This document shows, in pieces, positions 12,682 to 60,474 of a stretch of 64,000 nucleotides of DNA (position 1 is the stretch's first letter; each line of letters begins with the position of its first letter). Under the pieces are notes generated by a model. The model was not told where the DNA came from. It ran no database searches and was given only the letters and a program-made list of their open reading frames with translations. The position numbers and the translations under genes were made by a program. Source of the DNA: Poecilobothrus nobilitatus (taxonomy: Eukaryota; Arthropoda; Insecta; Diptera; Dolichopodidae); the NCBI GenBank assembly GCA_947095535.1, contig OX352772.1, positions 149,898,553-149,962,552 of the forward strand, written 5' to 3'.

Positions 12682-12755
12682 TATAAAAATTTTTATTTTT
12701 TATTTATATGTTTTAGATAGACAAATATTTTTCTGTACACCTTTCATTAGATTAT

Positions 12756-41598: not shown

Positions 41599-42865
41599 CT
41601 CTTGTCCAAAAATGTGTGGTCGTTACTTTAATTGACCAAACAAGATTTGTGCTCGTTATTTTAATTGTCCAAACATTTTTTAATGCTGAAGCATTAAAAA
41701 CCATATTCCAAAACTGATATTTCAGAAAATACTAAATATTCCATCTATCTGAAAAAATCGCAATATTCAAACATTATAATTGCGAAAATAAATTTTTAAA
41801 TAATTAAATTCACATAAAAAACGAAAAGACCAAAATAAACTACAGCTTAAAAAAAATTTTGATAAAACCTAAAAACATAAAAATTTATTCGATAAGCCGT
41901 AGTACAGCTAGAGTAGTAAAGTAGGTGGTAAGGTTCCATCTGGGCGTGGGAAACATAAAGTATGTAAATATAATATGCAAAGATTTATTATATTTTTTAA
42001 TAAAAAGCTTTTACGGTCAACCATGCAGATATTGACTTTGTTATCCGGCGTTGTTATTAAGTAATTTAAAGAAAAGGTCGTATGTATAAAATTGTGAGGA
42101 AAAAAGTTATATTTAGTAATTTATTGTTGTTTAATTAATAAATATGTAAATAAAAATTTATATGACACCTTTTCAATTGGCTATTACAAAGTTATTGCAA
42201 GAATAAATTGTATGTAGGTAATTGTTCAATTGGAGTGTTTATCCATCATGTTATATCAATTTTATAATTAATTTAATCTTAAAAAGATTGGATTGGATTG
42301 ATCAAAATATTATTTTTAAACTATTTTGTATAATGCAAAATAAAAATGTTAATTAACAAACAATCGATGTGAATAAAATTTCTTGTCTTAGAAATACATT
42401 TCCTGATTGATAACTGCTGATGTATTATGCAGATAGTCAACAAATAGAATACACTAATAAATAAAAGGTATTATCAAATATGTTTAATATAAAAATTTGT
42501 AAATAAAGATTTATATGACACCTTTTTAATTGGCTATTGCAAAGTTATTTCAAGAATAAATCTCGTGTACGCAATTGTTTGATACATATTGTCAACTACA
42601 TTGTGTTATGCAAAATTACCCATAAATTAAGCAGTAGTTGCTTAAGCAGTAACTTGCTGCAGAAGTATAGGTAATTAATAATGGGTATAAAAGGTAAGTT
42701 GTAAGGGTATACACTATCATTATATTATAAAAAACAAACAATAATAGAAGTACAATGGCAAGAAAGGCAATTTTAGCTAAACATCTCGAAAAAGAATCGC
42801 CAAAATTTGAAATTTTATAAGAAAACGAGGAAGAGTGCAGTAGAGTAGACTGCGTCAACTCTGGG
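41599..42865. repeat. Repeat-derived spacer
   Basis: No gene. 41880-42108 matches, inverted, parts of 57565-58170 (GGTTGACCRTRAAAGC and TTTTCCCACGCCCAG blocks). A ~90-bp segment containing TTTATATGACACCTTTT occurs at about 42139-42230 and again at 42492-42580. Confidence 0.65.
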
Positions 42866-44990
42866 ATACCCGTATGAACGTAATATATCCTGTTTCTATA
42901 AAACTTGATCATCTTTTAAAAACATTCAGATGTTTTAGTACCGAACTACAGAAATATATTTATGTAGATTGTGGAGTTGTATGACAGCTACCCGAATCTA
43001 TTGCTTCTAGCTTCATTAAGTTCCAACATATGCAAGAAGCCTGAATCGGCTGCTTTAGACCAATCAAATTTTACAAAAGTTTTTGGCATGCAACTCGACA
43101 TTTTTTCACTAAATTTCAGATAGCTAGCTTCAATATACACTGAGTTATTTTCATTTAAAAAGAGAAGTTGTATGGCAACTACCCGAACCTGTCATATCAT
43201 CACAACCAAATTTTACAGAAGTTATTGCCATAAAACTGGATCATCATTTGCAAAATTTCAGATACCTAGATTGAATAGACACTGGGTTATTTCCATTTAA
43301 TGAAAAAAGTTGTATGGCAGCTACTCGAATCCGGCAGCCGAAAATGCTGGAGTTAAATAGCAGATCTAACAATTTTGCAAAAGTGACCTATACGAAATGT
43401 CAGTTTTTTAGCTCCTTTATTTTTTGAGGTATCGTGCGGGCGGACACTGAGTTATTTTCATTTAAAAAGAAAGTTGTATGGCAGCTACCCAAACCCGTCG
43501 CATCACCACAACTAAATTTTGCAGAAGTTGTTTCCATAAAACTTGATCATCATTCGCGAAATTTCGGATACCTAGATTGAATAGACACTGGGTTATTTTC
43601 ATTTAAAGAAAGAAGTTGTATGGCAGCTATTCGAACCCGGCGCCCGAAAATGCTGGAGTTAAATAGCAAAACTAACAATTTTGCAAAAATGACGTATACA
43701 AAATGTCAGCCTTCTAGATTTTTTATTTTTTAAGTTATCGTGCGGACGGACACTGAGTTATTTTCATTTAATAAGAGAAGTTGTATGGCAGCTACCCGAA
43801 ACTGTTGCACCAGCACAACCAAATTTTGCAGAAGTTGTTGCCATAAAACTTGATCATCATTTGTATAATTTCAGACGCCTAGCTTCATTAAGTTCCAAGA
43901 GGGGCAAGAAGCCTGAACCGGCTGCTCTAGACCAACCAAACCAAATTTTACAAAAATTTTTGGCATGTAACTCGACACCTCTTTACTAAATTTCAGATTC
44001 CTAGCTTCAATAGACACTGAATTATTTTCATTTAAACGGATAAGTTGTATGGCAGCTACCCGAACTCGTCGCACCACCACAACCAAATTTTGCAAAAGTT
44101 GTTGCCATAAAACTTGATCATCATTTGCAAGATTTCAGCCGCTTAGATTCATTAACTTCCAAGAGGTGCAAGAAGCCTGAACCGGCTGCTCTAGACCAAC
44201 CAAACCAAATTTTACAAAAGTTTTTGGCATGTAACTCGACACTTCTTTACTAAATTTCAGATTCCTAGCTTCAATAGACACTGAATTATTCTCATTTAAA
44301 CGGATAAGTTGTATGGCAGCTACCCGAACCCGTCGCACCACCACAACCAAATTTTGCAAAAGTTGTTGCCATAAAACTTGATCATCATTTGCAAGATTTC
44401 AGCCGCTTAAATTCATTAACTTCCAAGAGGTGCAAGAAGCCTGAACCGGCTACTCTAGACCAATCAAATTTTACAAAAGTTTTTGGCATGTAACTCGACA
44501 CCTCTTTACTAAATTTCAGATTCCTAGCTTCAATAGACACTGAATTATTCTCATTTAAACGGATAAGTTGTATGGCAGCTACCCGAACCCGTCGCACCAA
44601 CACAACCAATATTTAGAAAAGTTGTTGCCATAAAACTTGATCATCATTTGCAAAATTTCAAAATCTTAGCTTGAATAGATACTGAGTTATTTCTATTTAA
44701 AGAAAGAAGTTGTATGGCAGCTACTCGAACCTTCCGACCGAAAATGTTGGATTTAAATAGCGAAACTAACAATTTCGCAAAAGTGACGTAAAAAAATTTT
44801 TAGCCTCCTAGCTCTTTTATTTTTTGAGTTATCGTGCAGACGGACAGACGTACGTGGCTTAATCGACTCAGAATTTAATTCTGAGTCGATCCATGCCTTT
44901 GACACTATATCTAGCTCGACTCCTTTAAGGTGTCACAAACGTAATGGTAAATTTATTATACCCTTGAACATAGTTCATACGGGTATAAAA
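42866..44990 (+). mobile_element. DINE-like element E (ATACCCGTATGAAC termini)
   Basis: The left end GGATACCCGTATGAACG (42863-42880) is the inverse of the right end GTTCATACGGGTATAA (44973-44988), so short terminal inverted repeats are visible. Inside is a tandem array, then TTTTTTGAGTTATCGTGC, a short GGAC run, the palindrome GACTCAGAATTTAATTCTGAGTC split around 44869, and a GGTGTCACAAACG block. The architecture parallels elements A-D although the sequence is distinct. Confidence 0.65.
42960..44780. repeat. Tandem array with mixed ~142-165 and ~262-bp periods
   Basis: GTTGTATGGCAGCTA-type landmarks occur at intervals of 141-166 bp at both ends of the array and about 260-264 bp in the middle (43782, 44044, 44308, 44568). 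A dimeric unit has been amplified in the centre. Confidence 0.85.
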
Positions 44991-44994
44991 ATCA

Positions 44995-47268
44995 AATAGC
45001 ACGAAAATTTAGAGATGATGAAGACAACATTCTTCCCTGGACAAAGGAAGGATTTAATCAAATTGTGGAATACTCCGTGAAAAATGTCGAACCGAATAAC
45101 TTAATTAGAATGACGTTTGTCGGAGAGAATTTCCAAACTCTAGGTTGGATAAACTTTAAGCTTGCAAGTTTGGTCAAATTTGAAGATGCCTGGGAGTTAA
45201 TAAGTAAAATTTTTCAAAGCAATTCGGAATGTTAAGATATGAATCTTTTCAATTAACAACAACAACTGTAAAGTTGCCTACGGGAAGTGAACTTGCAAGA
45301 AGGTATTTTACATTTGATAAAGAAAGTTTAAAACGTAAGGGGATCGTTACTATCAGAAACAAGAATAACATTTGTCTGCCTCGTGATATTGTTGTAGCAA
45401 AAGCCTTTGCTGATGAAGATATTAACTACAATTAAATTCGTAAGGACACAAGAAAAGGAGTTAATGCAAAAAAACAAATATAAATTTTGTAGAAGGTGCA
45501 GGTATGCCGCAACTAAAAAAAATACAAGAATTTTTGGGAAATGTGTATAGAATTGATGTTTACGATTGGGGAAATAATAAGAATATTATTTTTGATAGAA
45601 AAAATGAGTGGAAAAGAATCAATTTATTATATTTTGAAAATTATTTTAACTTCATTACTTTCCTAACATCCGTATCTTGCATCGACTATTACTACGAAAG
45701 GTGTAAAGTCGGTTTTATTAACCGAAAGTGGCACAGATTGAAAATACATTTATTCGCTGCCGACAATCTCCTGCAAGTAATTCCATACCCACCAAAATTT
45801 CTTGCAAAATTTGTAAACGGTCATTTCGAGGTGAAAAATGTTTTAGCAATCATAAAAATAATACATCTCAAAAGATCCATAATTGTACACCTTGCTTAAA
45901 TACATATTTTACAAAATTTGGTTCACATAAATGTAATACAGTTTTTTGCAAGAATTGCAACAAAATGGTAGAAAGAAACCACTTTTGCTATATTAATGTA
46001 GATAGACGTCAACCAAGAACCAATGATTTTCTATTTTTATTTTACAATTTAGAGACAATGCATGAGAAAACATTACATCAGAATCATAATGAGGACGTAA
46101 CATTGCACGAAACAAACTTATGTCTTATTTTTTTAAGATGTCATAGTTTTATTGCGGAGCCAAATTTATTTTTTTGTTCTATTTTTTTGTTTTGTTCTGT
46201 GGCTTTAGAACAGTTTATGATTTAGAAAAGTTTATGATTCAGATGTTATTTCGAATTAAATGAATTACATTTTTGAAGTGTCCAAAAAGTTTAAGCAAGT
46301 AGTAGTAATAACTCATAATGGTCAAAGTTTTGACCATCAATTTATTTAAATAAATTACTTCATAAAAGTAATAAAACACCAAAATTAATAATGAGAGGTA
46401 CAAAAATTATACAAATGCAGCTAAATAACATTAGATTTTTGGATTCTTTAAATTATCTTCTTATAGCACTATCACAGCTTCCAAAAGCTTTTGATTAACC
46501 AGGTGATCTTGAAAATGGATATTTTCCACATTTATTAAACAAAACAGAAAATCAAAATTACGTTGGTCTGTTACCATCTATGCATTACTACAGTCCAGAT
46601 ACAATGTCAGCAGAAAAGCGAAAAATATTTTTAAATGGGTATGAACAAAATAAAAATACAAAATTTAATATGAAACACGATTTTATAGAACATTGTACAA
46701 ACGACGTACTTATTTTAACGGAAGCATGCATAAAATTTAGAAATCTTCTACGGCAAGAAAATAATGTCTGCCCTTTTACTGAAGCTGCAACCATAGTAAA
46801 AGGGCAGCCTGCAATTTCGTTTTTCGAAGGAACTTTTTAAAACAGGAAACTATAGGGTTAATACCTAAAAAAAGTAATAAGTATTAGTTTTATTTTAATA
46901 TTTTAAAAATATTTTTGTATTTATATAATATATTTTTATCTAGGTTATAGATTAACAGACTTCCAATCAAAAATAGCACTGCAGTGGTTAATTTGGAGGA
47001 AGATCAAAGAAAAATTTACATTCGTCACGCAGGAAAAGAAAAAGAAGCAATCATAAATGGCATAAAGGTAGATGGGATTTGTGTAGAAACAAAGCAAATT
47101 TTCGAATTTTATGGCTGTAATTTCCATGGACATCCAAAATGCCATCCACATAAAAGAGCTGAAATTATACGTGACAATGGTGTTGACACTCTTGACATTA
47201 GATTTGAAAACACCGTAATGAGATCAGAAAGATTAAGATCATTTGGATTCGAGATAAATGAAATATGA
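44995..47268 (+). pseudogene. Polinton DNA polymerase B, N-terminal half (second copy)
   Basis: It starts with an N-terminal region: FQTLGWINFKLASL, IFQSNSEC, then NICLPRDIVVAKAF. A Cys-rich segment follows (CKICKRSF, CLNTYFTKFGSHKCNTVFCKNC; 45780-45970). Exonuclease domain: FYNLETMHE, where the usual Asp of motif I appears as Asn; ITHNGQSFDHQFI; and EHCTNDVLIL. The last piece (46984-47268) has IFEFYGCNFHGHPKCHPHKR and MRSERLRSFGF. The palm domain is absent: coding stops at 47268 and a capsid gene on the opposite strand begins. Multiple frameshifts and stops. It complements Polinton A, which has the palm but lacks this N-terminus. Confidence 0.85.
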
Positions 47269-47370
47269 GAAACACTAAAATTCCTTTTTACTTATTATGA
47301 AACACTAAACTTCCTTTTACATGTTCACATAGACGTTACGATTTTTATCAATTTCGATATTGGCATCGAA
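47121..47370. repeat. 250-bp direct repeat, copy 1 (other copy 49076-49325)
   Basis: It holds the end of the polymerase fragment and the C-terminal end of the inverted capsid gene, including the junction between them. The second copy lies 1955 bp downstream with only scattered substitutions and no net indel. Confidence 0.95.
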
Positions 47371-48586
47371 TTCTGCAAACACAATAGAAGTTAATGGAGA
47401 GCTGACTCTTGCTTTAATCTTTACTACTCCCTGGTTTAATAAACTCTGACATGTATCCGTAGCCGTCTGGTGATAAATCAAAAACTAGTATTGTATAACC
47501 TTTTGAAAAAAGTTCTTTTGAAATTTGATGTCCTTTATCAGAGTGATGTATACCAGTTTCACTGAATAATGCTAAATTTGCACGAGAATTACAAAGATTA
47601 TTCTATGTAAAACTTGTTTCAATTGCAGAGTTTGGTGTAGGCACTCCATTCACATATAATTGAAATTCTGTGAAATTTTGATAATAGAAATGGCATGGAT
47701 TTTTTGATCTTTTACCATTAAAATATTCATTATTAAACATACAAAATATAGCTTTTGGTATTTGTCCTATAAATATATTATCCAATGATATGTTGGAAGT
47801 GTTACCTGGAATTGTAAATGTCTTAATTTCACTTCTCGTATAAAAATATTTCGCGTTAGCCTTTTCCAGTACAGTATTGTGTGCTATCAATATGCTACGA
47901 TTAATTGTTAATTGTTAAATGTTTCATGTTTCATGTATAATGTAGCTTCGAGAATTTTTAAATAACTTTCATCGTTATCGTTATAGAAAATATAAAAATC
48001 TTGTTTCTTTAATGCTAATTTTTAAGTAATTTGGAAGTATTGAAGAAATCTACATGCAATTTTCCCATTAATTCTACTATTGCAGAATTGTTGTATGATT
48101 TTTGTCTTGATTTAGAACCAGAATTGTTGAAATCATTTACATTTGATTTATCCAATTTCCAACCAGATGATTCTAGATGTGTTTAACTGGAATCTGTGCC
48201 ATAATTTAGTAAAGTAGTTAAGTATGCTTTATAATGGTATAAGGGATCTGAAGCGATGATGTTTTTACAGTTTAGAATTACATTACATTGTTTAATTAAA
48301 GAGTGTAATAAATTATTTACAACACTCGGCTGGGGAGCTGCCTTTGCGTCAGTTCCGGTTTCTACTTTATCGTTTGCACTCCAAACTCATCCATCTTGTT
48401 TTAATATTTGACCTATAAATTTTATGTATGTTGAGAATAAATATCTCCATTCCCAAGCGAAACAAATTCTATAGTTGAAGGTGATGCCTCTAAAGAAGGT
48501 AAAGGATTGTATGCCACCTCTTCTGAACGCAAAATACTTGTTTGTACGGGTAATGACGCATCAAGTTCAGATTTCATACATTTCAT
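47325..48586 (-). pseudogene. Polinton B major capsid protein (second copy)
   Basis: The minus-strand start at 48586 (ATG 2 nt after the stop of the upstream small gene) gives a product with the same landmarks as the copy at 10554: TIEFVSLGNGD, PSVVNNLLHSLIKQC, ELMGKLHVDFF, KNPCHFYYQNF, GVPTPNSAIETSF and a final IEIDKNRNVYV. Several stops and frameshifts (for example near 48420, 48185 and 47990) break it. It lies immediately downstream of the small basic-tailed gene on the same strand. Confidence 0.85.
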
Positions 48587-48588
48587 TT

Positions 48589-49031
48589 TTAATTGAATAT
48601 ATCGGCGGTTTTACTTTCCTGTTTTCTTCGCTTTTTCGACTTCAAATGTGTCTTGTTAGAAACTGCTCGTCTTTTTATAGATCTTTGTCTTTTTATAGCT
48701 ACTTGTCTTCAACCATACATCGAATGCAGTTGATTAACCACTGACTTCCGTAACTTTTTTATGCGACCTTTGCTTTGATCAATACAGCTCCTTTTATGTT
48801 TCCACCAGATGCTATATCATTAAAAATATTTTTACTTGTCTTTACAGCCTCTTTTTTAATTAAGTCCCAACTTGATGTAAAAATTTGGTTTAAGTAACGA
48901 ATTAAACCTCCGAATATATTTCCAAAACTACGACCTCTTTGTATAGCTGGATAAAACTGTAATAAAGGTCCAATATCGTCGATTCCTCCTCCTACTTGAG
49001 AGGAATAATATCTCACCTAAGCTCTTTCCAT
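48589..49031 (-). pseudogene. Polinton B small protein: GxG-type core and basic C-terminal tail
   Basis: It starts at 49031 with MERA and a stop at codon 5, then YYSSQVGGGIDDIGPLL, QRGRSFGNIFGGLIRYL and a helical WDLIKKEAVKTSKNIFNDI. After a frameshift near 48760 a very basic tail (KRQRSIKRRAV, KSKKRRKQES) ends in TADIFN at 48591. Conserved Polinton protein; the basic tail suggests DNA or capsid contact. Function not established to my knowledge. A relative begins at 53854 (+). Confidence 0.72.
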
Positions 49032-49075
49032 GTTTGATAGGATACCATACTTGAGTAGTACTATTTATATTGTTT

Positions 49076-49325
49076 TTTCCATGGACATCCAAAATGCTAT
49101 CCACATAAAAGAGATGAAATTATACGTGACAATGGTGTTGACACTCTTGACATTAGATTTGAAAACACCGTAATGAGATCAGAAAGATTAAGATCATTTG
49201 GATTCGAGATAAATGAAATATGAGAAACACTAAACTTCCTTTTTCCTTATTATGAAACACTAAACTTCCTTTTATGTGTTCACGTAGACGTTACGATTTT
49301 TATCAATTTCGATATTGGCATCGAA
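49076..49325. repeat. 250-bp direct repeat, copy 2
   Basis: Matches 47121-47370 in the same orientation, carrying the same polymerase/capsid junction. It sits between the small gene (-) and the 229-aa-type fragment (-), where a minor capsid gene would be expected. Confidence 0.95.
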
Positions 49326-49346
49326 CACTTTAAAAATCATTGACTA

Positions 49347-49568
49347 TCAATCTTTGTAAACTTCTTCTAAAACATTAAATGTTGTACTAATTAAATGTTG
49401 TCCATTCCGGTGTTGCTGAGTTCTTAATTTTGGACTTCTTAGTAAAGGTTTTAGTTTTTGTTTTTTTGTTTCAGGAAACTGTGAAAGTATACTTGAGGAA
49501 ATTGAACTACCGGCCGATCTTAGTGTCTTCTTTTTTTCAGGAGATGGTACAGCAACGGAAATTACATC
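49347..49568 (-). pseudogene. C-terminal fragment of a 229-aa-type Polinton protein (Polinton B)
   Basis: The minus-strand frame ends at TGA 49347-49349. It reads DVISVAVPSPEKKKTLRS and then a Ser/Lys-rich tail ending FNVLEEVYKD. The start of this stretch resembles DIITVPLDSPSPPTKKEK in the gene at 52220-52909. The gene stops abruptly at 49568, where the TIR of Polinton C begins. The resemblance is short, so this is moderate evidence only. Confidence 0.5.
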
Positions 49569-50358
49569 AGTAGGTAACTGTGCACTTTGGGATTTGAACC
49601 ATAACGCACGACATGCTGACCTACATTTTGATTTATGGGTTTAATGTAGGTCATGCTTGGTTAGTAAGTCAAGAACTTGTTTTGATCGTTTTGGTTTAGG
49701 TTTTAAGTTAAGTTGTATGTGTGGGTTGTTAACTTATAAGATCCAAATGGTTTTATAGTAGGAAGTCAAGTGTTAAGCAATTTAAAGTAGGGTCGACCCT
49801 TAATAAACAAAATTTTATAACTAAAGTTTAAATACTAGACGCACATATAAAAGTAGTAAGAAAATTTCTTATATGAAAATAAAAAACAGATAATTTTTTT
49901 ATTTTTAAATCTACAGCGCTTCTTTAAAATTGAAAAGAAAAAGTGTAATCCTGTTTTTTTTTTTGTTAGCATAAAGAAAAAAAATTAAAGTAAGATATAG
50001 ATTTTTTTTTGTTTACATAAAAATGTGGTCTCTTCTGGATAGAAGAATTTATAGAAGAAAAGAGAAAACGAAAGTCATTAATTAGCTGACTGCATGTCGT
50101 GTAAGATATTTTTTTTATATTTCATTAAGAATGTTCAGAAAATATGAATAGAAAGAAAACAAACAGCAAATCAAAAATATGGAACTGATTAAACTAAAGA
50201 TATACTCTTTGATATGCATTTATGTTTCTTAAAATGCATTTATGTTTATGTTTATTTTTTTTTTTTTTGTTGTGTTTTTGTTTTTGTATAGAATAATTCA
50301 AAGATAGGTAAAATGATAGGTTAAATGGTATCTATTTTAAAAACATAAGATAAAAATA
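49569..50358 (+). repeat. Polinton C left terminal inverted repeat
   Basis: It begins AGTAGGTAACTGTGCACTTT at 49569 and matches the inverted sequence 16560-17591 with indels. Its inner end is at about 50358. A 5'-AG start fits Polinton termini. The candidate target-site hexamer just outside is TACATC (49563-49568); the matching right end is not in the window, so the duplication cannot be confirmed. Confidence 0.75.
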
Positions 50359-50402
50359 AAAGACATTTATTTTTATGTTTAAATTCTTTTATTATTATAT
50401 TT

Positions 50403-50639
50403 TTATTTAAATCTAAGTTTTAACATTTTTTTACGATGATCAGATGTTAAAATTGCAGAAATAGTGAGACCAACTTTCTCTATACGTCTTTGAATTCTAC
50501 CTGTATCACGTGCGTATTCTTCCCAATGACTTTTCCTTGCTGATCTGTAAGCATACTCCCATACATGCATAACGTGAATTTCTTGTTTAATATTGAAGTG
50601 AACTTTTTTAGTTTTGTTATTTAAATTCATGTCGTACAA
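50403..50639 (-). CDS. Polinton C small 78-aa protein, intact
   Basis: Complete 78-codon frame with HVWEYAYRSARKSHWEEYAR and RIQRRIEKVGLTISAILTSDHRK. Rich in basic and aromatic residues, helical-looking, no signal peptide or membrane segment. I believe a protein of this type recurs in insect Polintons but I cannot name a function. It lies 45 bp inside the TIR, on the strand opposite to the capsid genes. Confidence 0.6.
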   Translation of the reverse strand: MYDMNLNNKTKKVHFNIKQEIHVMHVWEYAYRSARKSHWEEYARDTGRIQRRIEKVGLTISAILTSDHRKKMLKLRFK

Positions 50640-50657
50640 GTACGAAAATTGAAAGTC

Positions 50658-51160
50658 TTAATCTAACATTTTTTCCTTTAAAAGATACATATATACATTA
50701 TAACAATTTTTAACAGCACATCTGAAATTGTTGTTTGATAAGTGTATAGAACAATTTGATTTAAAGTTATCAATCTTTTTCAATGGCGGCAAGTTTCTGC
50801 TGAGATCTTCTATTTTAACACTGTCAATGTACTTTTGAAGAAAAAGTTTTTTTTGTTCTCCTTTAACATAAATTTTTTCAGCTGACTCTAAATAGTGTTT
50901 TAATATACATTTTACATCTAAATATTCAACTAAACCGTTATTCCGTTTAAGTCCATTTATTTTACTTTCGCAATACTGGTTATTATATTTCATATCCGGA
51001 CTAAGTTCTTCTGCGGGGTACGGTGCTTTTACGGTGATACACAGTTGGAATTCTTCCAACTTCCTTTTTCAAGTATGGCTAACTCTTTTAGGAAATATTG
51101 CTTTTCCTTTCCTTGTAAAAATTGTAGGTCAACTATGAGAACTTGTTTAACCATGTCGAA
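50658..51160 (-). pseudogene. Polinton C putative nuclease-like protein, one frameshift
   Basis: It starts near 51153 with MVKQVLIVDLQFLQ and FLKELAILEKGSW, shifts frame near 51050, then continues at 51059-50658. The second part has ITVKAPYPAEELSPD, INGLKRNNGLVEYLDV, KIYVKGEQKKLFL and DLSRNLPPLKKI. The pattern (early DLQ, later INGL..G...Y and YVKG.QK) resembles a protein common in insect Polinton-like elements that may have an RNase H/exonuclease fold. That fold is my inference. The C-terminus has Cys/His residues (CSIHL, CAVKNC). Confidence 0.55.
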
Positions 51161-51273
51161 GATTTATGGAAGAATGTTCCAAAGAACAACTAAATTACAT
51201 TTATATTCACTTCGGGAAAAGAGCTTTTCGTATAAATATAGGTTAACAGAGTTAGTTTTTAGCTAATACAATT

Positions 51274-51932
51274 ATGCTGTTTCACCCGTTTACTCTGATG
51301 ATGGCTGGTCCATCATGCTGTGGTAAAACAACTTTTATTCACAATTTAATAAAATATATAAAAGAAAATATACAACCACATATTAATAGAATAATTTGGT
51401 GTAATCCAGACAAAAATGCCGTTCCAAAATATGTCAAAGATATGGAATATAGTAACACTATTCCAGATTTTAATGATAGTCAAAAACCTTTGTTAATTAT
51501 TATCGATGATATGATGTTAAATTCTTATGAATTATTTACTAGAGGATCACATCATAGAAATTTATTTGTAATATTTGTAACACAAAATGTTTTTCACCAA
51601 GGTAAATTTTCGAGAGATATTTCACTCAACTGTAAATATTTAGTACTTTTTAAAAATCCAAGAGATAAATCGCAGATATTACCTCTAGCTTGCCAAATAT
51701 ATCCCAATCAAATTAAAGCATTTGAAAAAGTATATAATGATGTCATGTCAGTCCCATATGGCTATATATTAATAGATTTATTCAAGAAGTTAATGATATA
51801 TTTCGATTAAGAAGTGATGTATTTGGAAAAGGTTTGTGTTATTGTACGAGAGATCAATTAGAACAATTTGGGGAGGAATATGAAACGTTTGAAGACCAAT
51901 CAACATATATTGCACCTATTAAAAACCTCTAA
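51274..51932 (+). pseudogene. Polinton C DNA-packaging ATPase (FtsK/HerA-A32 type), one frameshift
   Basis: The frame 51274-51810 has Walker A GPSCCGKT (residues 12-19), Walker B LLIIIDD (73-79), then GSHHRNLFVIFVTQNVFHQ and LVLFKNPRDKSQ. A frameshift near 51782 moves into a frame reading IQEVNDIFRLRSDVFG, which ends at TAA 51930-51932. Expected role: pumping element DNA into capsids. It opens the rightward capsid gene series. Both nucleotide-binding motifs are intact, unlike the copy at 53.97-54.5 kb. Confidence 0.9.
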
Positions 51933-51939
51933 ATAAAAA

Positions 51940-52222
51940 TTCCAGAAAGTAATTATAAAACACTGTGACCCTGAAGTAATAAAAACATTTTGCGAAATCT
52001 CTTTAAATATTTTAAAAGGTAATTGTAATCTGAGTAAAAAAGCAACAACCCAATTACGAAAGTATAAAAAAGAATTACGATCACTTATTTGCCGGAAAAA
52101 ATCTATTATTAAATGTTATTTGCCAGAAAAAGCAAAAGGGAAATTATTATTCAACGTGGTGGATTTTTACCTACATTTCTTGGTGCAATATTATCAGGGA
52201 TAATCGGAAATTTTATAAAATG
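51940..52222 (+). pseudogene. Polinton C small protein with basic middle and RGGFLP hydrophobic tail
   Basis: A frame with CDPEVIKTFCEISLNIL and LRKYKKELRSL shifts near 52130 into the frame reading IIIQRGGFLPTFLGAILSG and ending KTGA-overlapping at TGA 52220-52222. The stop overlaps the next start as ATGA. The Gly/Leu-rich hydrophobic tail after a basic region recalls small core or membrane-active virion proteins; conserved in Polintons, function uncertain. No start codon is clear. Confidence 0.6.
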
Positions 52223-52909
52223 AATAATACAACATTTAATAAAATGATAATTTTAAAACCTGAGATTTATGAGAAAATGAAGCAAAATGCGGACGTTGAA
52301 CTTAATGAGTTGGATAAAAATATGAAAAAAATATTGTTAAATAAACATCTCACGGACACTCAAAAATGGTATTTATACAGAAAACATCTATTTAAAATAA
52401 GAAACAAAAAACGACAACTTCCTAGAAATAAAGAGGAGAAAATAAAAATTACGGAAACAAAAGGTACTCAAACTCGTGCAAAACCAATGTATTTAGATGC
52501 GGAAACTCAATCGCATTTTACTGAATATAAGAATGTTGGAATACAAGTTATTCCTGAAGAAGAAGAAGTATATGAAAAAGAAGCTGATGACGAAGTATTT
52601 GATGATAAAATTCAGGAAAATGTTTTAACAAAAGCATTGTCAGCTGCTTCACTTGGAGAACGTCTTAGAAAAAGAAAATCAATTAGAAATCAAAATGTAC
52701 AAATTTTTAAAACTGATACAGGAGACATTATAACTGTTCCTTTAGATAGCCCAAGCCCGCCAACGAAAAAAGAAAAAACTATAAATAGCAAAGAGTTGAA
52801 TAATTCATCAAGACGTGTTTTAAGGTCAGCAGTAGGTAATACTCAAACAGAACTTAATTTTCCAATTCGTAAGAATAAATCCGCAAGCTCATGGACAACA
52901 TACAAGTAA
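52220..52909 (+). CDS. Polinton C 229-aa protein, intact
   Basis: Intact frame of 229 codons. N-terminal third is helical and basic (KNMKKILLNKHLTDTQKWYL). The middle has GTQT- and GIQV-type motifs and an acidic stretch (EEEEVYEKEADDE). The C-terminal third is Ser/Lys/Arg-rich with DIITVPLDSPSPP. It starts in a 4-bp ATGA overlap with the upstream gene and overlaps the next gene by 19 bp, showing tight viral-style packing. Unknown function; a C-terminal relative is at 49347-49568 (-). Confidence 0.7.
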   Translation: MNNTTFNKMIILKPEIYEKMKQNADVELNELDKNMKKILLNKHLTDTQKWYLYRKHLFKIRNKKRQLPRNKEEKIKITETKGTQTRAKPMYLDAETQSHFTEYKNVGIQVIPEEEEVYEKEADDEVFDDKIQENVLTKALSAASLGERLRKRKSIRNQNVQIFKTDTGDIITVPLDSPSPPTKKEKTINSKELNNSSRRVLRSAVGNTQTELNFPIRKNKSASSWTTYK

Positions 52910-53807
52910 ATGATGAATTTTATGTCACTTTACTCAGTGATTCATCTATGAACTATTATCCAAAAAATGCATTATCATCTTTTACAAATAAAATGAATAA
53001 ATACAAGTGCGATTCAAAGTGGAAAGTCGGTATTTCAGAAATGTATGTTAATGATTTCGTTCCAAATGTGTATGGTGAAGAATGGGAAAAAAGTACTCAA
53101 ATATTTATTAAAGGTATGCAGAAAGATGTGATAGGAGTTGGAACATCATGTATTCCATACATAGAAAACAAATGATATGCGACTGGAAAGTTTTTCTACT
53201 ACCAACACTAATTCAAAATATACGCCCACTTAATAGGTTTACAAGAAAAGAAGTTGAACGACAGTTGATTTGGGGAATTTTTGATTTTATAAACGATGAA
53301 GTTCATTATACACAACCAACAAAAGCTGAAGAGATGCCTAAAAATTTAAGTTACACCACAATATGTGTTACTAAGCCTAAAATAGATATAAAAATAAGAG
53401 CAAATTACGCTTATACCCTCGAAGGACTTTTGACAACATGTTTCAATCAAGTATCTTTTAATGTTACAAGTTTTAAAAAATATAAATCACGTGTAATAGA
53501 AGCTTTCAAAACTTGTATAGATAGTGTACAATTGATTCCCATTAGTAAACCAGATATGTTTTTTATATATACAGACATAATTGAACCGCAAAAAATAGGT
53601 GATAAAGATGTAAGGTGTTTAAGATCTGTTAACATACAAAATTCTTTTACTGATACTGTAAAAGAATTCAGTAATATTCAATATTGCAATGTGGAGAAAT
53701 CATTTAATAACATTTCATTACTTTTATGTGATAAATATGGATACAAAATAAACTTTTCCAATAGTTCAATTCCAACAAAAATTGTATTACATTTTAAAAA
53801 AGTATAA
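52891..53807 (+). pseudogene. Polinton C minor capsid (penton-type) protein, one frameshift
   Basis: The first frame (52891-53175) begins MDNIQVNDEFYVTLLSDSSM, with SSFTNKMNKYKCDSKWKVGI and EMYVNDFVPN, the N-terminal signature of the Polinton minor capsid protein. After a shift in the 53148-53175 overlap, the second frame continues to the stop at 53805-53807 with MFFIYTDIIEPQKIGDKDVR and a C-terminal strand-rich end (TKIVLHFKKV). Expected role: single jelly-roll pentamer at virion vertices. Apart from the one frameshift it appears complete, about 300 residues. Confidence 0.78.
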
Positions 53808-53853
53808 ATAAAAGCGATTTTACAAAACTATATATTATTTTATTTTATTCATT

Positions 53854-53975
53854 ATGGAGAGAGTATACTATAAGTATTATTTAATTCAATCTAGTAGAGG
53901 ACTTGATGATATCGGCCCTTTATTACATTCAACCGTACCTTTTCAAAGAGGTCGTGGATTGGGAAGCATTATGAG
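53854..53975 (+). pseudogene. Polinton C small GxG protein, cut off at a rearrangement junction
   Basis: It starts MERVYYKYYLIQSSRGLDDI and continues GPLLHSTVPFQRGRGLGSI, matching the start of the gene at 49031 (-). Homology stops at about 53975, where a minus-strand ATPase begins, so only about 40 residues remain. The open frame beyond that point is junk. Confidence 0.7.
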
Positions 53976-54493
53976 TTCGTCAAGGTCATTTAATTTATTA
54001 TTCATATATAACCCCAGGAAACCTTTTATATCTTCCGGATATAATTGCCTAGCAAGAGGAAAAATCTGTGATTTGTCTCGAGGGTTTTTGAAAAGCACTA
54101 AATATTTACAATTTAATGAAATATTTCGGGAGAATTTCCATTGATGAAAAACGTTTTGCGTTAATAATAAAATAGATAAATTGCGGTGGTGCGAACCTTT
54201 AAAAAAAAATTCACATTCTTGTTTATTTGCAGAATCTAACATTAAATAATTTAAAACAATTAAAGTAGGTTTATTTTCGCCAAGCTCTTCTGCAATTCTG
54301 TTATAAAAATCTATATCAGGAAAATTTATACTTGTTGGAATAGCAGACATTTCAGGGTTCCACCATTTTATTTTTTAATGTTTGGTTGTATCAATCTGTT
54401 AATATTTTTAATTAAGTTACATACAAATGTTGTTTTTCCACATCCACATGATCCCGCAACCATCATTGTAAATGGATGATTAAAATATATCAT
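53965..54493 (-). pseudogene. Second packaging ATPase copy, degenerate (probably Polinton B)
   Basis: The minus strand from 54493 reads MIYFNHPFTMMVAGSCGCGKT (Walker A kept), a stop near 54377, and then WWNPEMSAIPTSI. In the Walker B region TLIVLNYLML the Asp-Asp pair is replaced by Asn-Tyr. GSHHRNLSILLLTQNVFHQ and LVLFKNPRDKSQ follow. It ends near 53970 at the junction with the small gene of Polinton C. The lost Walker B acids mean no ATPase activity. Confidence 0.85.
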
Positions 54494-54599
54494 TATCGGT
54501 TCGCGTTTTAAAAGTCATTGAAAGCTAACTAGATTTGTTCTACAAATATATAAAAGCACAAACGTGGTGTATAACTTATTCTCATTTTAAAAGATGGAG

Positions 54600-54850
54600 G
54601 TAAAAGAAGTGAAAGAGTTTTTAAAATCATATTCCTTTGTCTTATTAAATTAGCATAAGTAGCGTATGTTTCACATGTGTAAATACATTAAAGAATTTTC
54701 AATAACAGAAAAATTTACATCAATATACGGAACTCATTTTGCTCTTTATCCTTGGGCTTACGATAACTCGTAATCTGAACCGGATACATGTAACTGTTGC
54801 TCTATAGAAAATTTTAAAATAGAATTGGAAAATCTGATTAAATGGTACAA
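54600..54850 (+). other. Short coding-like remnant upstream of the integrase
   Basis: A frame with YIKEFSITEKFTSIYGTHFA and ENFKIELENLIKWYKHNV is interrupted by stops. I do not recognise it; it may be a decayed Polinton gene. Confidence 0.35.
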
Positions 54851-54854
54851 GCAT

Positions 54855-55766
54855 AATGTCAAGGGAGTAAATAGTATCGGAAATACATAGACCAGCCAGA
54901 CGAAACTTTCGTGGAAGAAAATTTATTCAAAAAGGTTTAAACGATACATGGCAAATCGATTTAGTAGAAATAATTCCATATGCAAAGTTTAACAAAGGAA
55001 ATAAACATTTATGAACTGTAATAGACATCTTTTCGAAATGTGCTTATGCTGAGCCAATTAAAACTAAAAATGCTAATAATGTTTTACTGGGCATGCAAAA
55101 CATTTTCAAACGTGTTGGAACACTCCGAAAAAACATTCAATCTGAACAAGGTAAAGAGTTTTTTAACAAAGAATTTAGGAAACTTATGGAAATAAAAAAC
55201 ATTAATCATTATCTTACATATTCTGAAAGCATCCATAGTAGAACGTTTTAACCGTACTTTAAAAAATGTGGAAGCAGTTTAGTTTTCAGGGTAATTATAA
55301 ATGGATATCTATTTTACCCTCACTTATTGAGAACTACAACTCAGCATATCATCGTACAATTAAGCTTCAACCTACAAAAGTTACAAAAGCAAACGAGAAA
55401 TATATTTAGAAGAACATTTACATGCAACCAAAATTTTATCAGAAAGCAAAATACAAAGTTGGAGATTATGTACGTATAAGTAAATACAAAAAAAATTTTC
55501 CAAAACGTTATCAACCAAACTGGTCAACAGAAATATTTACAATTAAAGAAGTAAAACGCACAGATCCAATTACTTACAACTTACTTGATTATACAAAAAC
55601 ACCGATTTCAGGTTCTTTTTACGAGTCTGAACTTACTCGAATCAAAAATGCTGGCACTTTTCTTGTTGAAAAAATATTGAAAAGAAAAGGAAATCAGGTT
55701 TTCGTTAAATAGTTAGGTTTTGATAAAGATCGCAATTCATGGGTAAATAAAAACTATATTATATGA
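54855..55766 (+). pseudogene. Second Polinton integrase with chromodomain, broken
   Basis: It starts MSR as in Polinton A, then TWQIDLVEII (first Asp). The second catalytic motif reads NIQSEQGKEFF, with Glu in place of Asp. ASIVERFNRTLK (Glu) is in a shifted frame. The C-terminal frame 55422-55712 has YKVGDYVRISKYK and VEKILKRKGNQVFVK; a TAG at 55710-55712 is followed by the chromodomain end to 55766. Stops, frameshifts and a substituted catalytic Asp make it inactive. Confidence 0.87.
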
Positions 55767-55833
55767 AACTTTATTACCTTTTTTTTATTGTTACAACTCT
55801 TTATTACATTTTTTTTTGCACATTTATAGTTTT

Positions 55834-55969
55834 CAATACTCAAATTAGCATAATCCAAAGTAATTTAATAAGAACATAATAGATCTTGTCTATATTAAAA
55901 TTTATTTTCAAATTATTTTTCAATTAAACATAACAATTAATCACTAACTACAACTTTTTTTCTTTTTTT
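55834..55969. repeat. Direct repeat X, copy 1 (copy 2 at 57428-57562)
   Basis: A ~135-bp block beginning AATACTCAAATTAGC flanks the DINE-like element and repeat Y on both sides, nearly unchanged. Confidence 0.92.
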
Positions 55970-57160
55970 ATACCCTACACATTAAGTATAGGGTATATTA
56001 ACTTTGGTATGGTGTTTGTAACCACCAAAAGGAAGCGAGTTAGGTATAGACATGTATATATATTCTGAATCAGGATCACCGCCTGAGTCGATTTAGCGAT
56101 GTCCGTCCGTCCGTCCGTACGCACGACAACTCAAAAAATAATGATGCTATCTTGATGAAATTTATACTGTAGGTTAATAATGACTAAGGTAAGGCGGGGA
56201 TTGTAAATGGGCGAAATCGGACCATGCGTTCGAGTACCTCCCATACAACTGTCAAAACCGAATACCCATATCTTCGAAATTAATAAAGATAGAAACTTAA
56301 AATTTTGTACGAGGGTGTGTTTTTCTGAATCCCTGATATCCCTAAAATTTGAGATGAATTGGAGTGGTTGTTCGGGTACCTCCCATACAAATCCCAAAAC
56401 CGAACGAGCATATATTCGAAATTAACAAAGATAGAAACTTCAAATTTGGTACTAGGGTGTGGTTTCCTGAATCCCTGATTTGTCCAAAATTTGAGATGAA
56501 TTGGAGGAGCTGTTCGGGTACCTCCCATACAACTCCCAAAACCGAACAAGCATATCTTCGAAATTAATAAAGATAGGAACTTCAAATTTGATTCGAGGGT
56601 GCTGTTTCCTAAATCCCTGATTTGCCTAAAATTTGAGATGAATTAGAATGGTCGTTCGGGTACTTCCCATACAACTCACAAAACCGAACAAGCATATCTT
56701 CGAAATTAATAAAGATAGAAACTTCAAGTTTGGTGCTAGAGTGTTGTTTCCTGAATCCCTGATTTGTCCAAAATTTAAGATGAAATAGAATGGTTTTTCG
56801 GGTCTGCCACACAACTCCTAAGACCAAACAAGCATATCTTCGAAATTAATAGATGTATCAACTTGAAATTTGATATAAGAATGTTTTACGCTGTTGATGT
56901 CTCTAAAATTTGAAATGAATTGAGGTGGTGGTCCGCGTGCCTCCACACACTTCCCAAGATCTAACAAGCATATTTTCGAATTTAATAAAGATAGGAATCT
57001 AAAATTTTATACAAAGGTTGTAAAAGCATTTATTTTTTTAGCTTAGTTATATTAAATACCTAACTAAAATAACTTATGGATTTTTAATTTAATTTGAATT
57101 TTTTAGGTGTAGGGTATAAATGAGTGGGTTGCATCGACTTACTGTTAGTTTTATTTGTTG
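55970..57160 (-). mobile_element. DINE/Helentron-like element F (inverted relative of D)
   Basis: Inverted copy of the 40275-41598 family. The left end TATACCCTACACATTAAG is followed by (GTCC)n at 56101-56116. The right end is GGTGTAGGGTATAAATG, the GGTTGCATCGACTT hairpin and TTATTTGTT. It lies between a T-run and GTATAAAC, consistent with Helitron-type insertion without a long target duplication. Confidence 0.72.
56170..56960. repeat. Tandem array, ~142-bp monomer (inverted)
   Basis: GTACCTCCCATACAA recurs about every 142-150 bp; same monomer as 40430-41345. Confidence 0.88.
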
Positions 57161-57427
57161 TATAAACTTTCTGCCACATATAATATCACAGTTATAACGT
57201 TTATTGTTTTGTATTATGTATTTTTCTATGCATTCACATATTTTCTAACTTTAACCGTGAAAAATAAAACAAACAAATCAAAAAGAATTAATATTCAAAA
57301 AAATGAAACAAAGTACTTATCTGATGTTCATTAAACATCTAATGTTCATTGGCCAATTATAGGTGAACAAACATTAGGATGAACTTGAAGTTGATCTATC
57401 TACGAACTATCTAAGAAGAACAGAAGT
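57160..57427. repeat. Direct repeat Y, copy 1 (copy 2 at 60206-60474)
   Basis: A ~268-bp block from GTATAAACTTTCTGCCACAT to AAGAAGAACAGAAGTC, nearly identical in both places (one difference is ACATTAGG against ACATTTGG). Confidence 0.93.
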
Positions 57428-57562
57428 CAATACTCAAATTAGCATAATCCAAAGTAATTTAATAAGAACATAATAGATCTTGTCTATATTAAAATTTATT
57501 TTCAAATTATTTTTTAATTAAACATAACAATTAATCACTAACTACAACTTTTTTTCTTTTTT
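57428..57562. repeat. Direct repeat X, copy 2
   Basis: Matches 55834-55969; joined directly to the end of repeat Y. Confidence 0.92.
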
Positions 57563-58330
57563 CCCTCACGATTTTATACATACAACCTTTACTTTAAATT
57601 ACTTTAAAACTAAGATACAATAACAAGATCAATATCTGAATTTTTATTTATCTCATAAATAATAACTGTATTTCGCGTTAATATTATGTTACAATAACTG
57701 GTTGACCATGAAAGCTTTTTATTAAAAAAATAAAATAAAATTTTAATTATTTGCATAATCTATGTTACTATACTTTAACAACACCTATTTAGATCATTGC
57801 ACTTGAAATGCATTATTCTACACAAACACACCGTAAAAGCTTATTATAAAAAATTAAATAAATTTTTGCATATTATATTTACATGCTCTCTGTTATTATA
57901 CACGCGAAGAAAATACCAACACCTGTTTCATTATTGCACTAACCTATTCTACATTTTCTAGTTGACCTTCTATATTTATTCAAAAAAGCTTTTTCTGGAA
58001 ACTAATTATACAAGTGCCAAGTCATTGCATTTGGATGACGCCTCATTTACATAAAAATTTTCCCACGCACTGAATCCGGAAATTCCGGAAGCCTTTCCGG
58101 AAACTAATTATACAAGCTCCAAGTAATTGGCCTAATTTGCATAATTATTTTCCCACGCCCAGGTACCTACTTTACTAATAGCGAGCATGAAAAGAACTTT
58201 GAGAAAATGATTTTATCGGGAATGGGTATAATAATGTACATTTTTTTTTTGTATAAAATTTATTGTACCACACTCGATACTCGAAATAGTTTACATACTA
58301 AAATGTACATAAAACGAGGAAGAATACAGT
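57563..58330. repeat. Repeat-derived AT-rich region
   Basis: It contains internally repeated blocks: AAAGCTT.TTATTAAA at 57710 and 57836, GGAAACTAATTATACAAG at 57998 and 58102, TTTTCCCACGC at 58058 and 58150. Part of it matches 41880-42108 inverted. At 58340-58365 a CAACTC...GATACCCGTA motif resembles the left end of element E. Confidence 0.6.
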
Positions 58331-58669
58331 TGCCTTTGTCAACTCTTAGATACCCGTAGGAACCGTTAGTATGTTCACAGCCTGTCACTCTGCTTACAAT
58401 ATTATTTTTTTAATATTTTAGTATTTTAAAATAATTTGGGTGAATTTTATAATTTCTAGAACTATGGGTTGTACATATATTTTTTACATATATTTTACCA
58501 TTTAATACTCAGCGGTAAATGTATATTAAATTTACTTAGTACAAAATAGTAAATATAATTTTAAATATTATATTATATTATATTTAAATATTCCATTAAC
58601 AGAATAATTTCTTATAAGTACAATAAAATACATATATGTATGTAAGTACGGCGCTATATAATATATATC

Positions 58670-59790
58670 TATACTTTTATCATTCATTCTCTAGTGACAT
58701 ATACGATATGTAAATAAACATGATATTATATAAGTATGTATGTATAACAATATCATATAAATAAAAATTCTTCAAGCAACCGTTATGTTGTTTATTTATT
58801 TACATTCTTGTGTACTACGCATTATATCCTCAACAATTTCAAATTATCGAGTAAAACAATATGCAAAAAAATCGTTAAAGAAATTTGTTAGAAAAATTGA
58901 AAAAATCAAGTAACACTTTCGTCAATTATAAAGTAACCCTATATTATTAAAACAAGTTGTTAACAGAAATAAAAGTATAATGTTGAAGCTTTAATTTTTG
59001 TGTATTACTTCAAAAAAATTTTAACAGGTGTTCAAGTTACAGGTGTTTAAAAATAGGAAATTTTCAGTTTTTGACCCCTTACAGCTCCTGAACGGGGAGT
59101 GATACAAAAAAAATTTCTGAAATGACTCATACTTATTTTCAAAGATCCAACTTTTGTCAAAATTTCAAGTTTCCAACTTAAACCGTTTAGAAGATAGAAG
59201 GGTTGAAGGATTTTGCAAAATTTGAGTTTCGCATAACGGTAAATTAAGACACCGTATTCCACAAATATATATTTATTGTATATACATTTTTAAAGCTAAT
59301 AAAAGTAGCAATCGTTTGGCGTTTTCAAAATGAAGATATACCTTATACAACTTGTGCTATAACAATTTAAATATAGAGCTTTTTTGAACCTTTGGGGAGC
59401 TGTAGCTCCGTAACGGGTGGGGCTACAAAAAAAGTTATTAAAAATAAAATTAATATTTTTGTGAGATCTATCAGTAGTTAAAATTTCATAGCTCTATTGC
59501 AAAAAAAATGTGGGGATCTAAAAGTTAGGTGTTCGAGAGCTACCCTCAACCAAAAAAAATAGGGAACCTGCAAATAACTCCCAGAATATTTTTTGTAAAT
59601 TTCAAGATTCTAGCTTTCTTAGTTTTTGAGTTAGCGTGCTGACGGACGGACGGACATGGCTCAAAAGTCTTAGAATTTTTTTCTGATCCGATCCATACCT
59701 TTGGAGGTATATCTAGCTCGCTTATTTCGAGGTGTTACAAACGCAGGAGTAATTTTATTATACCCGATCCTATCGTACGGGTATAAAAAA
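58670..59790 (+). mobile_element. Monomer of the DINE-like family that forms the 4.3-6.4 kb foldback
   Basis: The sequence corresponds to the spacer plus right arm of 4299-6422. It begins near CATTCTCTAGTGACATA, runs through GTAGCTCCGTAACGGGTGG, (GGAC)n at 59643-59655 and the GTTACAAACGC block, and ends with the stem-loop TATACCCG...CGGGTATA at 59758-59784. This shows that the unit form is about 1.1 kb. Confidence 0.8.
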
Positions 59791-59926
59791 ACCAATTATA
59801 GAATTTTAACTTTTATTTTATAAAAACAAATGCATTCCAATAGTCTTATTATTTAACCTTAGTAATAATAAGACCTTCTCTGAACCACATCTCATCATAA
59901 AAATATAAGCTTACCAGCGTGAGTAT

Positions 59927-60172: not shown

Positions 60173-60205
60173 GTTATTTTAAATTGTTAGTTAACTTAAT
60201 TTTTT

Positions 60206-60474
60206 GTATAAACTTTCTGCCACATATAATATCACAGTTATAACGTTTATTGTTTTGTATTATGTATTTTTCTATGCATCCACACATTTTCTAACTTTAA
60301 CCGTGAAAAATAATACAAACAAATCAAAAAGAATTAATATTCAAAAAAATGAAACAAAGTACTTATCTGATGTTCATTAAACATCTAATGTTCATTGGCC
60401 AATTATAGGTGAACAAACATTTGGATGAACTTGAAGTTGATCTATCTACGAACTATCTAAGAAGAACAGAAGTC
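60206..60474. repeat. Direct repeat Y, copy 2
   Basis: Matches 57160-57427 in the same orientation. Confidence 0.93.

What the first reader, a model, noticed from the sequence alone, without database searches (positions are those of the whole stretch)
47325..54493. Probable Polinton-in-Polinton nesting
On the minus strand there is an ATPase (54.5-53.97), a C-terminal piece of the 229-aa-type gene (49.57-49.35), a small GxG gene and the capsid gene. This is the canonical order for one reverse-oriented Polinton (B). Between its ATPase and the 229-type fragment sits a second Polinton (C) that begins at its own terminus, 49569, inside the 229-type gene. Nested insertion, then deletion of C's right half and part of B, explains the layout.
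Basis: inference. Interest (0 to 1): 0.75.

Follow-up and report, generated by a model that had tools for sequence, protein, structure and literature searches.

The report
One Polinton inserted inside another Polinton
In what looks like an animal chromosome, an old, decayed virus-like transposon (a Polinton) carries the surviving left half of a second, apparently younger Polinton of another lineage; the nesting is ordinary transposon biology, but the inner one also carries a tiny gene resembling proteins that cells and some viruses use to release the stress brake on protein synthesis.

Summary
The nested-Polinton reading holds, with corrections. Inner element C starts exactly at 49569 with a terminus matching a third Polinton's end (17591, inverted, E 2e-38), abuts a remnant of B's 229-type gene, and stops inside its own GxG gene at about 53970 against B's truncated ATPase. 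The two ATPases fall in separate supported groups, so this is no inverted duplication. B shows more lesions than C, as expected if C came later. B also lacks its penton-type gene; a 97% copy of its PolB/capsid junction (250 bp) stands there. Deletion of C's right half is the likeliest history but is inferred; the own-genome search did not complete. The more surprising detail is in C: an intact 78-aa PPP1R15/GADD34-like ORF, with a relative probably beside a related ATPase elsewhere.

The parts
41906..41911 (.). B left target-site duplication AGCTAG (degraded)
   Evidence: 5 of 6 identical to 58180-58185 AGCGAG; 1.4% of 156025 flank 6-mer pairs match 5 of 6 or better, and 9 registers were looked at
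41912..42240 (+). B left terminal inverted repeat, tip AGTAGTAAAGTAGG (inner border approximate)
   Evidence: (E 3e-27 and 5e-19 segments to the inverted right end)
42860..44965 (.). insertion in B: element with 142/264/306-bp repeats (borders by eye)
46435..47268 (+). B PolB, front part only, with stops and frameshifts; stretch after 47038 assigned by eye
   Evidence: 46448-47038 to A PolB, 41.9%, E 1e-42; A's second PolB piece of 490 aa finds only itself; 59% over 170 codons, 3 frameshifts, 1 stop; PF03175 17.6 bits, below cut-off, in 46580-46837
47121..47370 (.). PolB/capsid junction, source or sister of the copy at 49076-49325
   Evidence: 97.2% over 250 bp, direct orientation
47320..48472 (-). 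B major capsid gene, decayed
   Evidence: capsid label by homologue L055
48759..49031 (-). B GxG gene (next to the capsid gene)
49076..49325 (.). copy of the PolB/capsid junction, sitting where the penton-type gene should be
49347..49568 (-). B 229-type gene, C-terminal remnant, one frameshift
   Evidence: for; (single frame) and the DNA comparison not significant
49563..49568 (.). TACATC, presumed left copy of C's 6-bp target duplication (right copy not present)
   Evidence: length 6 by analogy with PMC8097293
49569..49770 (+). C left terminal inverted repeat, tip AGTAGGTAACTGTGCACTT
   Evidence: 74.5% to 17591-17384 inverted, E 1.7e-38
50403..50639 (-). C: 78-aa PPP1R15/GADD34-like ORF
   Evidence: PF10488 34.3 bits, cut-off 26.1; PPP1R15B E 3e-6, PPP1R15A 9e-6, DP71L 1.3e-3; P0122 73%
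50658..51059 (-). C: 133-aa ORF of unknown kind
   Evidence: no Pfam match
51274..51923 (+). C packaging ATPase, one frameshift near 51780
   Evidence: 86% to P0001 over 217 codons
52220..52909 (+). C 229-aa gene, open
   Evidence: 80% to P0121, the only relative found
52891..53807 (+). C penton-type gene (two frames); name by position and homology only
   Evidence: homologues before the capsid gene in L055 (30.7%, 1e-9) and L058 (3.8e-7 and 1.5e-6)
53854..53970 (+). C GxG gene, cut off at about 53970
53971..54493 (-). B ATPase, C-terminal part missing (last matched residue 156 or 162 of 228); about 35 bp next to C of uncertain origin
54849..55724 (+). B integrase, decayed
   Evidence: (64% to A integrase piece over 200 codons, 2 frameshifts, 3 stops)
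55969..57426 (-). insertion in B's right end: 142-bp-repeat element flanked by a 136-bp direct repeat (55833-55968 = 57427-57562, 99%)
57427..58179 (-). B right terminal inverted repeat, tip (reverse strand) ATTAGTAAAGTAGG (inner border approximate)
58180..58185 (.). B right target-site duplication AGCGAG (degraded)

Best explanation
A Polinton (B, 41912-58179 on today's coordinates) inserted first and made a 6-bp target duplication. It decayed: its PolB lost the back part, and a 250-bp copy of the resulting PolB/capsid junction now stands where its penton-type gene should be. A second Polinton (C) from another lineage, whose terminus is of the family that also caps element A, then integrated into B's 229-type gene at GATGTA/TACATC. 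A later deletion removed C from within its GxG gene to its right end (about 7 kb or more if A is a fair guide), together with the right target copy, the part of B's 229-type gene for its first ~166 residues, and the end of B's ATPase. That joined C at ~53970 to B's ATPase. Two repeat-bearing elements also landed in B. Shown: two inverted ends for B with a near-match target duplication, C's left terminus, a 229-type remnant directly beside it, separate ATPase lineages, the missing pieces, more lesions in B. Inferred: integrase-mediated insertion of C as a whole element, one deletion rather than several events, and the order of all steps other than C after B.
For: B ends: inverted pair with (AGT)2-type tips; the tip motif and 6-bp duplication are those reported for Mavericks in PMC8097293. 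C end: 49569 tip repeated without mismatch at 17591 inverted, 74.5% over 220 columns, E 1.7e-38. Target gene: frameshift-tolerant match of 49345-49568 to the C-terminal parts of two 229-type proteins, 0 of 150 shuffles as high for each. Two lineages: 67% DNA identity of the ATPases, separate starred groups in a tree of 122 rows. Age: 15 frameshifts or stops in 834 aligned codons of B, 1 in 511 of C, Fisher p 0.008; terminal branch 0.24 for B, 0.067 for C. Order: penton-type then GxG in C and L058, and penton-type before capsid in L055 and L058, which makes B's gap between GxG and 229 visible.
Against: The right copy of TACATC and C's right end are absent, so C's insertion has one border only. 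The 229 match rests on about 56 codons (38% identical) with one frameshift; it fails in a single frame and by DNA (best E 0.036). B's target duplication is 5 of 6, the best of 9 registers looked at. About 35 bp at 53971-54006 have no clear origin, and an assembly joint there cannot be excluded. The lesion count uses nearer references for C than for B and leaves out C's penton-type gene, which has a frame change.
Confidence: 0.83

Rival explanations
1. The right-hand junction at ~53970 is not a deletion inside a nested pair but an ectopic recombination or an assembly joint that brought a C-type left end against B's ATPase.
For: About 35 bp at 53971-54006 match neither parent clearly; C's right end and right target copy are missing.
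Against: B's ATPase and 229-type remnant flank C on both sides in the order and orientation expected of one interrupted B, and B's two ends enclose all of it.
Confidence: 0.12
2. The two ATPases and two GxG genes are a simple inverted duplication of one element.
For: The ATPases lie inverted 2.3 kb apart.
Against: 67% DNA identity, separate starred groups with different nearest relatives, and a transposon end exactly at 49569.
Confidence: 0.02
3. Element A (10.5-17.6 kb) is the missing right half of C, moved by an inversion or translocation.
For: A's surviving part begins at its capsid gene and C ends in the gene that precedes the capsid; both share one terminus family.
Against: The ends are only 74.5% alike although C is little decayed, and the 6 bases outside them differ (TACATC at C; GTGATT at A).
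Confidence: 0.03
4. PolB(+) and integrase(+) belong to C or to a further element, and B is only the minus-strand block.
For: Their strand is C's strand; A has integrase and PolB on the strand of its capsid.
Against: They lie between B's two ends, one on each side of the minus-strand block, and their lesions (4 and 5) are like B's capsid (4), not like C; their identity to A (59% and 64%) is like that of B's capsid to A (62%).
Confidence: 0.1

Closest known systems
Polinton/Maverick elements (vertebrate Mavericks, PMC8097293: section 7 and passages seen)
   Same: Packaging ATPase, rve integrase, PF03175 PolB, capsid-type protein, AGT-repeat tips, 6-bp target duplication (degraded in B)
   Different: Gene order: that paper reports two modules facing each other in most; here B reads PolB+, capsid block-, integrase+, and A reads capsid, integrase, PolB on one strand. 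B's 16.3 kb includes C and two other insertions, so it cannot be set against their mean of 16.9 kb
Retrotransposons nested in Polinton-like viruses (PMC12220804, PMC12747079; only the passages with 'nested' seen)
   Same: A mobile element interrupts a gene of a Polinton-like element
   Different: There the guest is a retrotransposon; here it is another Polinton
PPP1R15A/B (GADD34/CReP) and the viral DP71L protein, for C's 78-aa ORF
   Same: Pfam PF10488 above cut-off; PDB sequence matches to PPP1R15B, PPP1R15A and DP71L
   Different: Lies in a Polinton near the ATPase gene; only the short PP1-binding region, 75-78 aa

Membership tests
Polinton/Maverick (B) | terminal inverted repeats with AGT-repeat tips | tested here: met
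   motif from PMC8097293; right tip has one change
Polinton/Maverick (B) | 6-bp target-site duplication | tested here: inconclusive
   AGCTAG/AGCGAG, 5 of 6, best of 9 registers
Polinton/Maverick (B) | integrase, PolB, ATPase and capsid genes | tested here: met
   all broken; integrase, PolB and capsid identified through A's genes
Polinton/Maverick (C) | terminal inverted repeats at both ends | tested here: inconclusive
   left end present and matched to A's right end; right end missing
Polinton/Maverick (C) | A32-type packaging ATPase | tested here: met
   488 relatives; by my count 80 of the 120 listed carry PF04665. P0001 reaches PF04665 with 24.6 bits against 22.8, but C's own frame up to 51807 only 16.7, below cut-off
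Polinton/Maverick (C) | integrase, PolB, capsid | tested here: inconclusive
   absent from the surviving 4.4-kb piece, which lacks the half where they would lie; C is filed as a fragment
Polinton/Maverick (A, yardstick) | rve integrase and PF03175 PolB | tested here: met
   rve 62.7 bits, DNA_pol_B_2 46.3 and 90.1 bits
Polinton/Maverick | adenain-type cysteine protease | not tested
   a piece at about 11890-12090 in A was noticed by eye only; L055's candidate reached 19.6 bits, cut-off 21.3
Polinton/Maverick | double-jelly-roll capsid | tested here: inconclusive
   homologue L055 folded at mean pLDDT 41.6; best PDB hits Sputnik and PBCV-1 capsids, E 1e-4 and 5e-4, TM 0.25; Pfam none; sequence search of the PDB with A's capsid piece nothing below E 0.5
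PPP1R15 (GADD34) PP1-binding region | PF10488 match above curated cut-off | tested here: met
   34.3 bits against 26.1; relative P0122 25.6, just below
PPP1R15 (GADD34) PP1-binding region | binds PP1 and directs it to eIF2-alpha | not testable with these tools
   KVHF in both C and P0122 fits an RVxF-type PP1 motif (motif recalled)

The most novel reading that the evidence does not exclude
C and its relatives are Polintons that carry, near the packaging ATPase gene, a short PPP1R15-like protein which would recruit PP1 to eIF2-alpha and keep translation going, as is reported for the viral DP71L protein. That would be a counter to host translation shut-off in an element class often studied as a transposon, and evidence for a virus-like phase.
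Probability: 0.45. Interest if true: 0.68.

Novelty: new member of a known kind. Interest (0 to 1): 0.42.

Why it matters
The nesting gives a relative date (C after B) and shows two Polinton lineages in one genome with different termini and, judged by A, different gene orders. If the PPP1R15-like gene proves conserved in the C lineage, it gives a direct handle on the question whether animal Polintons ever behave as viruses that must counter the host's translation shut-off.

Tried and rejected
Inverted duplication: rejected by the ATPase tree. A as C's missing half: rejected by end divergence and different outside hexamers. Single-frame test of the 229 remnant: no better than chance, followed by a frameshift-tolerant test. 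The inverted 142-bp-repeat arrays at 40275-41595 and 55965-57159 looked at first like B's terminal repeats; rejected because one lies outside B and the other is flanked by a 136-bp direct repeat inside B's right end. Collection searches: C ATPase in viral contigs, no relative; terminus pattern in viral contigs, 54 stretches, none of the 54 encoding any of five Polinton proteins by tblastn at E 0.01, so taken as chance; ATPase alignment in viral contigs, no relative; PolB of A in viral contigs, no relative; ATPase alignment in genome contigs, 4 loci, used for gene order. Structure of the penton-type homologue: mean pLDDT 30.7, not usable. PDB sequence search with A's capsid piece and C's penton-type piece: nothing below E 0.5. 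Rows for the second integrase piece of A (A_INT2) used a wrong frame and are not used here. Further paper searches, listings only: adintovirus with phosphatase and polinton, 1 paper on estuary viruses; insect Polinton gene order, 1 paper; PPP1R15/DP71L/ICP34.5, 61 papers, 10 listed; pp1c/baculovirus/gadd34/insect virus, 4 papers.
Full report
What was checked. The window is AT-rich (20-39% G+C in 1-kb blocks), without tRNA genes by the bacterial-code scan, and holds many repeat arrays and reading frames that look by eye like LINEs. Three Polinton pieces are present, called A, B and C here.

Element B, the outer one. An inverted pair of ends encloses a larger unit: 41912 (AGTAGTAAAGTAGG) and, on the other strand, 58179 (ATTAGTAAAGTAGG). 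The inner parts of the two ends align in several pieces, the best at 75.8% over 161 columns with E 3e-27 and 87.9% over 66 with E 5e-19; the tips themselves share only short pieces (13 identical bases, E 0.03; 86.7% over 30, E 7e-4). Outside the tips lie AGCTAG and AGCGAG, 5 of 6 alike. Of 9 registers looked at, the one given by the tips is the best, and 1.4% of 156025 pairs of flank hexamers do as well. AGT-repeat tips and 6-bp duplications are what PMC8097293 reports for vertebrate Mavericks (section 7 and passages seen). B is 16.3 kb on today's coordinates, C and two other insertions included.

B's genes. From left to right: PolB, front part only (+); capsid (-); GxG (-); remnant of the 229-type gene (-); C; ATPase (-); integrase (+). 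The back part of PolB is missing: A's second PolB piece (490 aa) finds only itself in the window. Of four comparator loci, L055 (contig in a tubeworm-symbiont MAG) and L058 (contig in a mussel-symbiont MAG) show the penton-type gene ahead of the capsid gene; the GxG gene between them is seen in L058 alone, weakly (E 0.008). Integrase is on the strand of the ATPase in L055, L056 and L058, and on the other strand in L057. In B the penton-type gene is missing: the two pieces of C's penton-type protein find only themselves in the window. Where it should be stands 49076-49325, a 97.2% direct copy of 47121-47370, which is B's own PolB/capsid junction. A tandem duplication followed by deletion, or template switching, would explain it; neither was shown.

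Element C, the inner one. Its left end is exact. The tip AGTAGGTAANNNTGCACTT occurs without mismatch at 49569 (+) and 17591 (-); a third match, at 42213, has three mismatches, and chance gives 0.72 matches at that laxity. The adjoining 200 bp align at 74.5%, E 1.7e-38. At 17591 the same tip caps element A beside sequence that looks by eye like a LINE; the only computed match there to an endonuclease-like frame of the window is weak (9 residues, E 0.05). C then carries a 78-aa ORF and a 133-aa ORF (-), the ATPase, the 229-aa gene, a penton-type gene and the first 39 codons of the GxG gene, and stops at about 53970. There B's ATPase begins, from its C-terminal side; its last residue matched to P0012 is 156 by tblastn and 162 by the frameshift-tolerant alignment, of 228. 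About 35 bp at the joint have no clear origin.

The 229-type remnant. Of 1000 shuffles, 140 and 64 reach these scores, and the stretch is not among the 8 best shown of 328 window segments of 50 residues or more scored against C's protein. By DNA the best pieces have E 0.036. With frameshifts allowed, and the C-terminal parts of the two proteins as references, the same DNA scores 44 and 53, and 0 of 150 shuffles reach either (maxima 38 and 37). The match starts at the base next to C's tip, uses one frameshift, ends in WTTF/WTTY, and the 11 bases ATGGACAACAT, where C's next gene starts, are found in both. I take the homology as real, but it rests on 56 codons at 38% identity.

Two lineages, two ages. 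The ATPases are 67% alike in DNA. In a tree of 122 rows (the 120 listed of 488 relatives, plus a piece of each window ATPase), C groups with P0001 and P0002 (100/100) and B with P0012 and P0019 (100/99); both lie in one larger starred set of 13 rows. The tree warns of few columns and has 24 open forks. Lesions: C has 1 in 511 aligned codons (ATPase, 229, PPP1R15-like) and B 15 in 834 (ATPase 1, capsid 4, integrase 5, PolB piece 4, 229 remnant 1), Fisher p 0.008. C's penton-type gene, which has a frame change, was left out for want of a close reference, as were both GxG genes. References for B are mostly more distant, which favours the result somewhat. Terminal branches, 0.24 for B and 0.067 for C, point the same way.

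Most likely history. B inserted; B decayed, lost the back of PolB, and gained the 250-bp copy where its penton-type gene had been; C inserted in B's 229-type gene; one deletion took C's right half, the right target copy and the neighbouring parts of B's 229-type and ATPase genes. A runs about 7 kb from its capsid gene to its terminus, which gives a rough least size of C's loss, if A is a fair guide. C after B is supported; the order of the other steps is inference.

An unlooked-for gene. C's minus-strand ORF 50403-50639 matches Pfam PF10488, the PP1-binding region of PPP1R15, at 34.3 bits (cut-off 26.1, E 2.5e-8), and in the PDB PPP1R15B (3e-6), PPP1R15A (9e-6) and DP71L (1.3e-3). DP71L is described as recruiting PP1 to dephosphorylate eIF2-alpha (PMC5346070, start of abstract in the listing). 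The one relative that the word-based protein search found, P0122 (73%), is 75 aa and lies on a contig of 2407 bases; the ATPase closest to C's, P0001, also comes from a contig of 2407 bases with the same source tag, which suggests one contig but does not prove it. P0122's best PDB match is DP71L (3e-6), though it falls just short of the Pfam cut-off (25.6 against 26.1). The rest of the window and the four comparator loci, which are themselves partial, show no such gene by tblastn at E 0.01. Searches for papers holding polinton with gadd34, polinton with ppp1r15, or maverick, gadd34 and transposon gave none; polinton with eif2 gave three, on giant viruses or an anemone (listing only). Only open-licence papers are held there, so this is not proof of novelty.

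What is known of nesting. PMC12220804 and PMC12747079 (passages with 'nested') describe retrotransposons nested in Polinton-like viruses. The search polinton with nested gave 63 papers, 25 of them listed; maverick, polinton, nested insertion gave 7. In the passages I saw of four of these papers (PMC3671162, PMC8097293, PMC12220804, PMC12747079) no Polinton within a Polinton is described; the others were not opened. Such nests should be common where Polintons are many (my inference), so I rate the nesting itself as a new member of a known kind.

Limits. The own genome could not be searched, so no intact copy, empty site or right end of C was seen. The capsid label rests on homology to L055 (36%, E 1.5e-53), whose weak model (mean pLDDT 41.6) ranks Sputnik and PBCV-1 capsids first in the PDB (TM 0.25), and an uncharacterised bracovirus-record protein first among viral models, several major capsid proteins following. 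The penton label rests on position and homology only.

Noticed in passing
   Followed up: partly
10500-17591 (+): Third Polinton piece A: capsid, protease-like piece (by eye), 130-aa ORF, integrase, PolB and right terminal repeat; left half not found in the window; right flank looks like a LINE.
   Followed up: partly
55833-55968 and 57427-57562: 136-bp direct repeat, 99% identical, flanking a 142-bp-repeat element with an A-rich end; an unusually long target duplication if that is what it is.
   Followed up: partly
1-2408, 28234-30390, 40275-41595, 55965-57159: Several copies of an element made of 142-146-bp tandem repeats with a related tail.
   Followed up: no
4299-6424 and 58662-59791: Inverted repeat of about 970 bp, 94%, with a further copy at 58662-59791 (92%).
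   Followed up: no
57144-57431 and 60190-60477: Direct repeat of 288 bp, 97% identical, one copy inside the repeat element in B's right end.
   Followed up: no
50658-51059 (-): 133-aa ORF of unknown kind between the PPP1R15-like gene and the ATPase of C.
   Followed up: partly
L055-L058: Contigs filed as bacterial MAGs that carry Polinton-type genes; L055, L056 and L058 are symbiont MAGs of a tubeworm and a mussel, so probably host DNA.
   Followed up: partly
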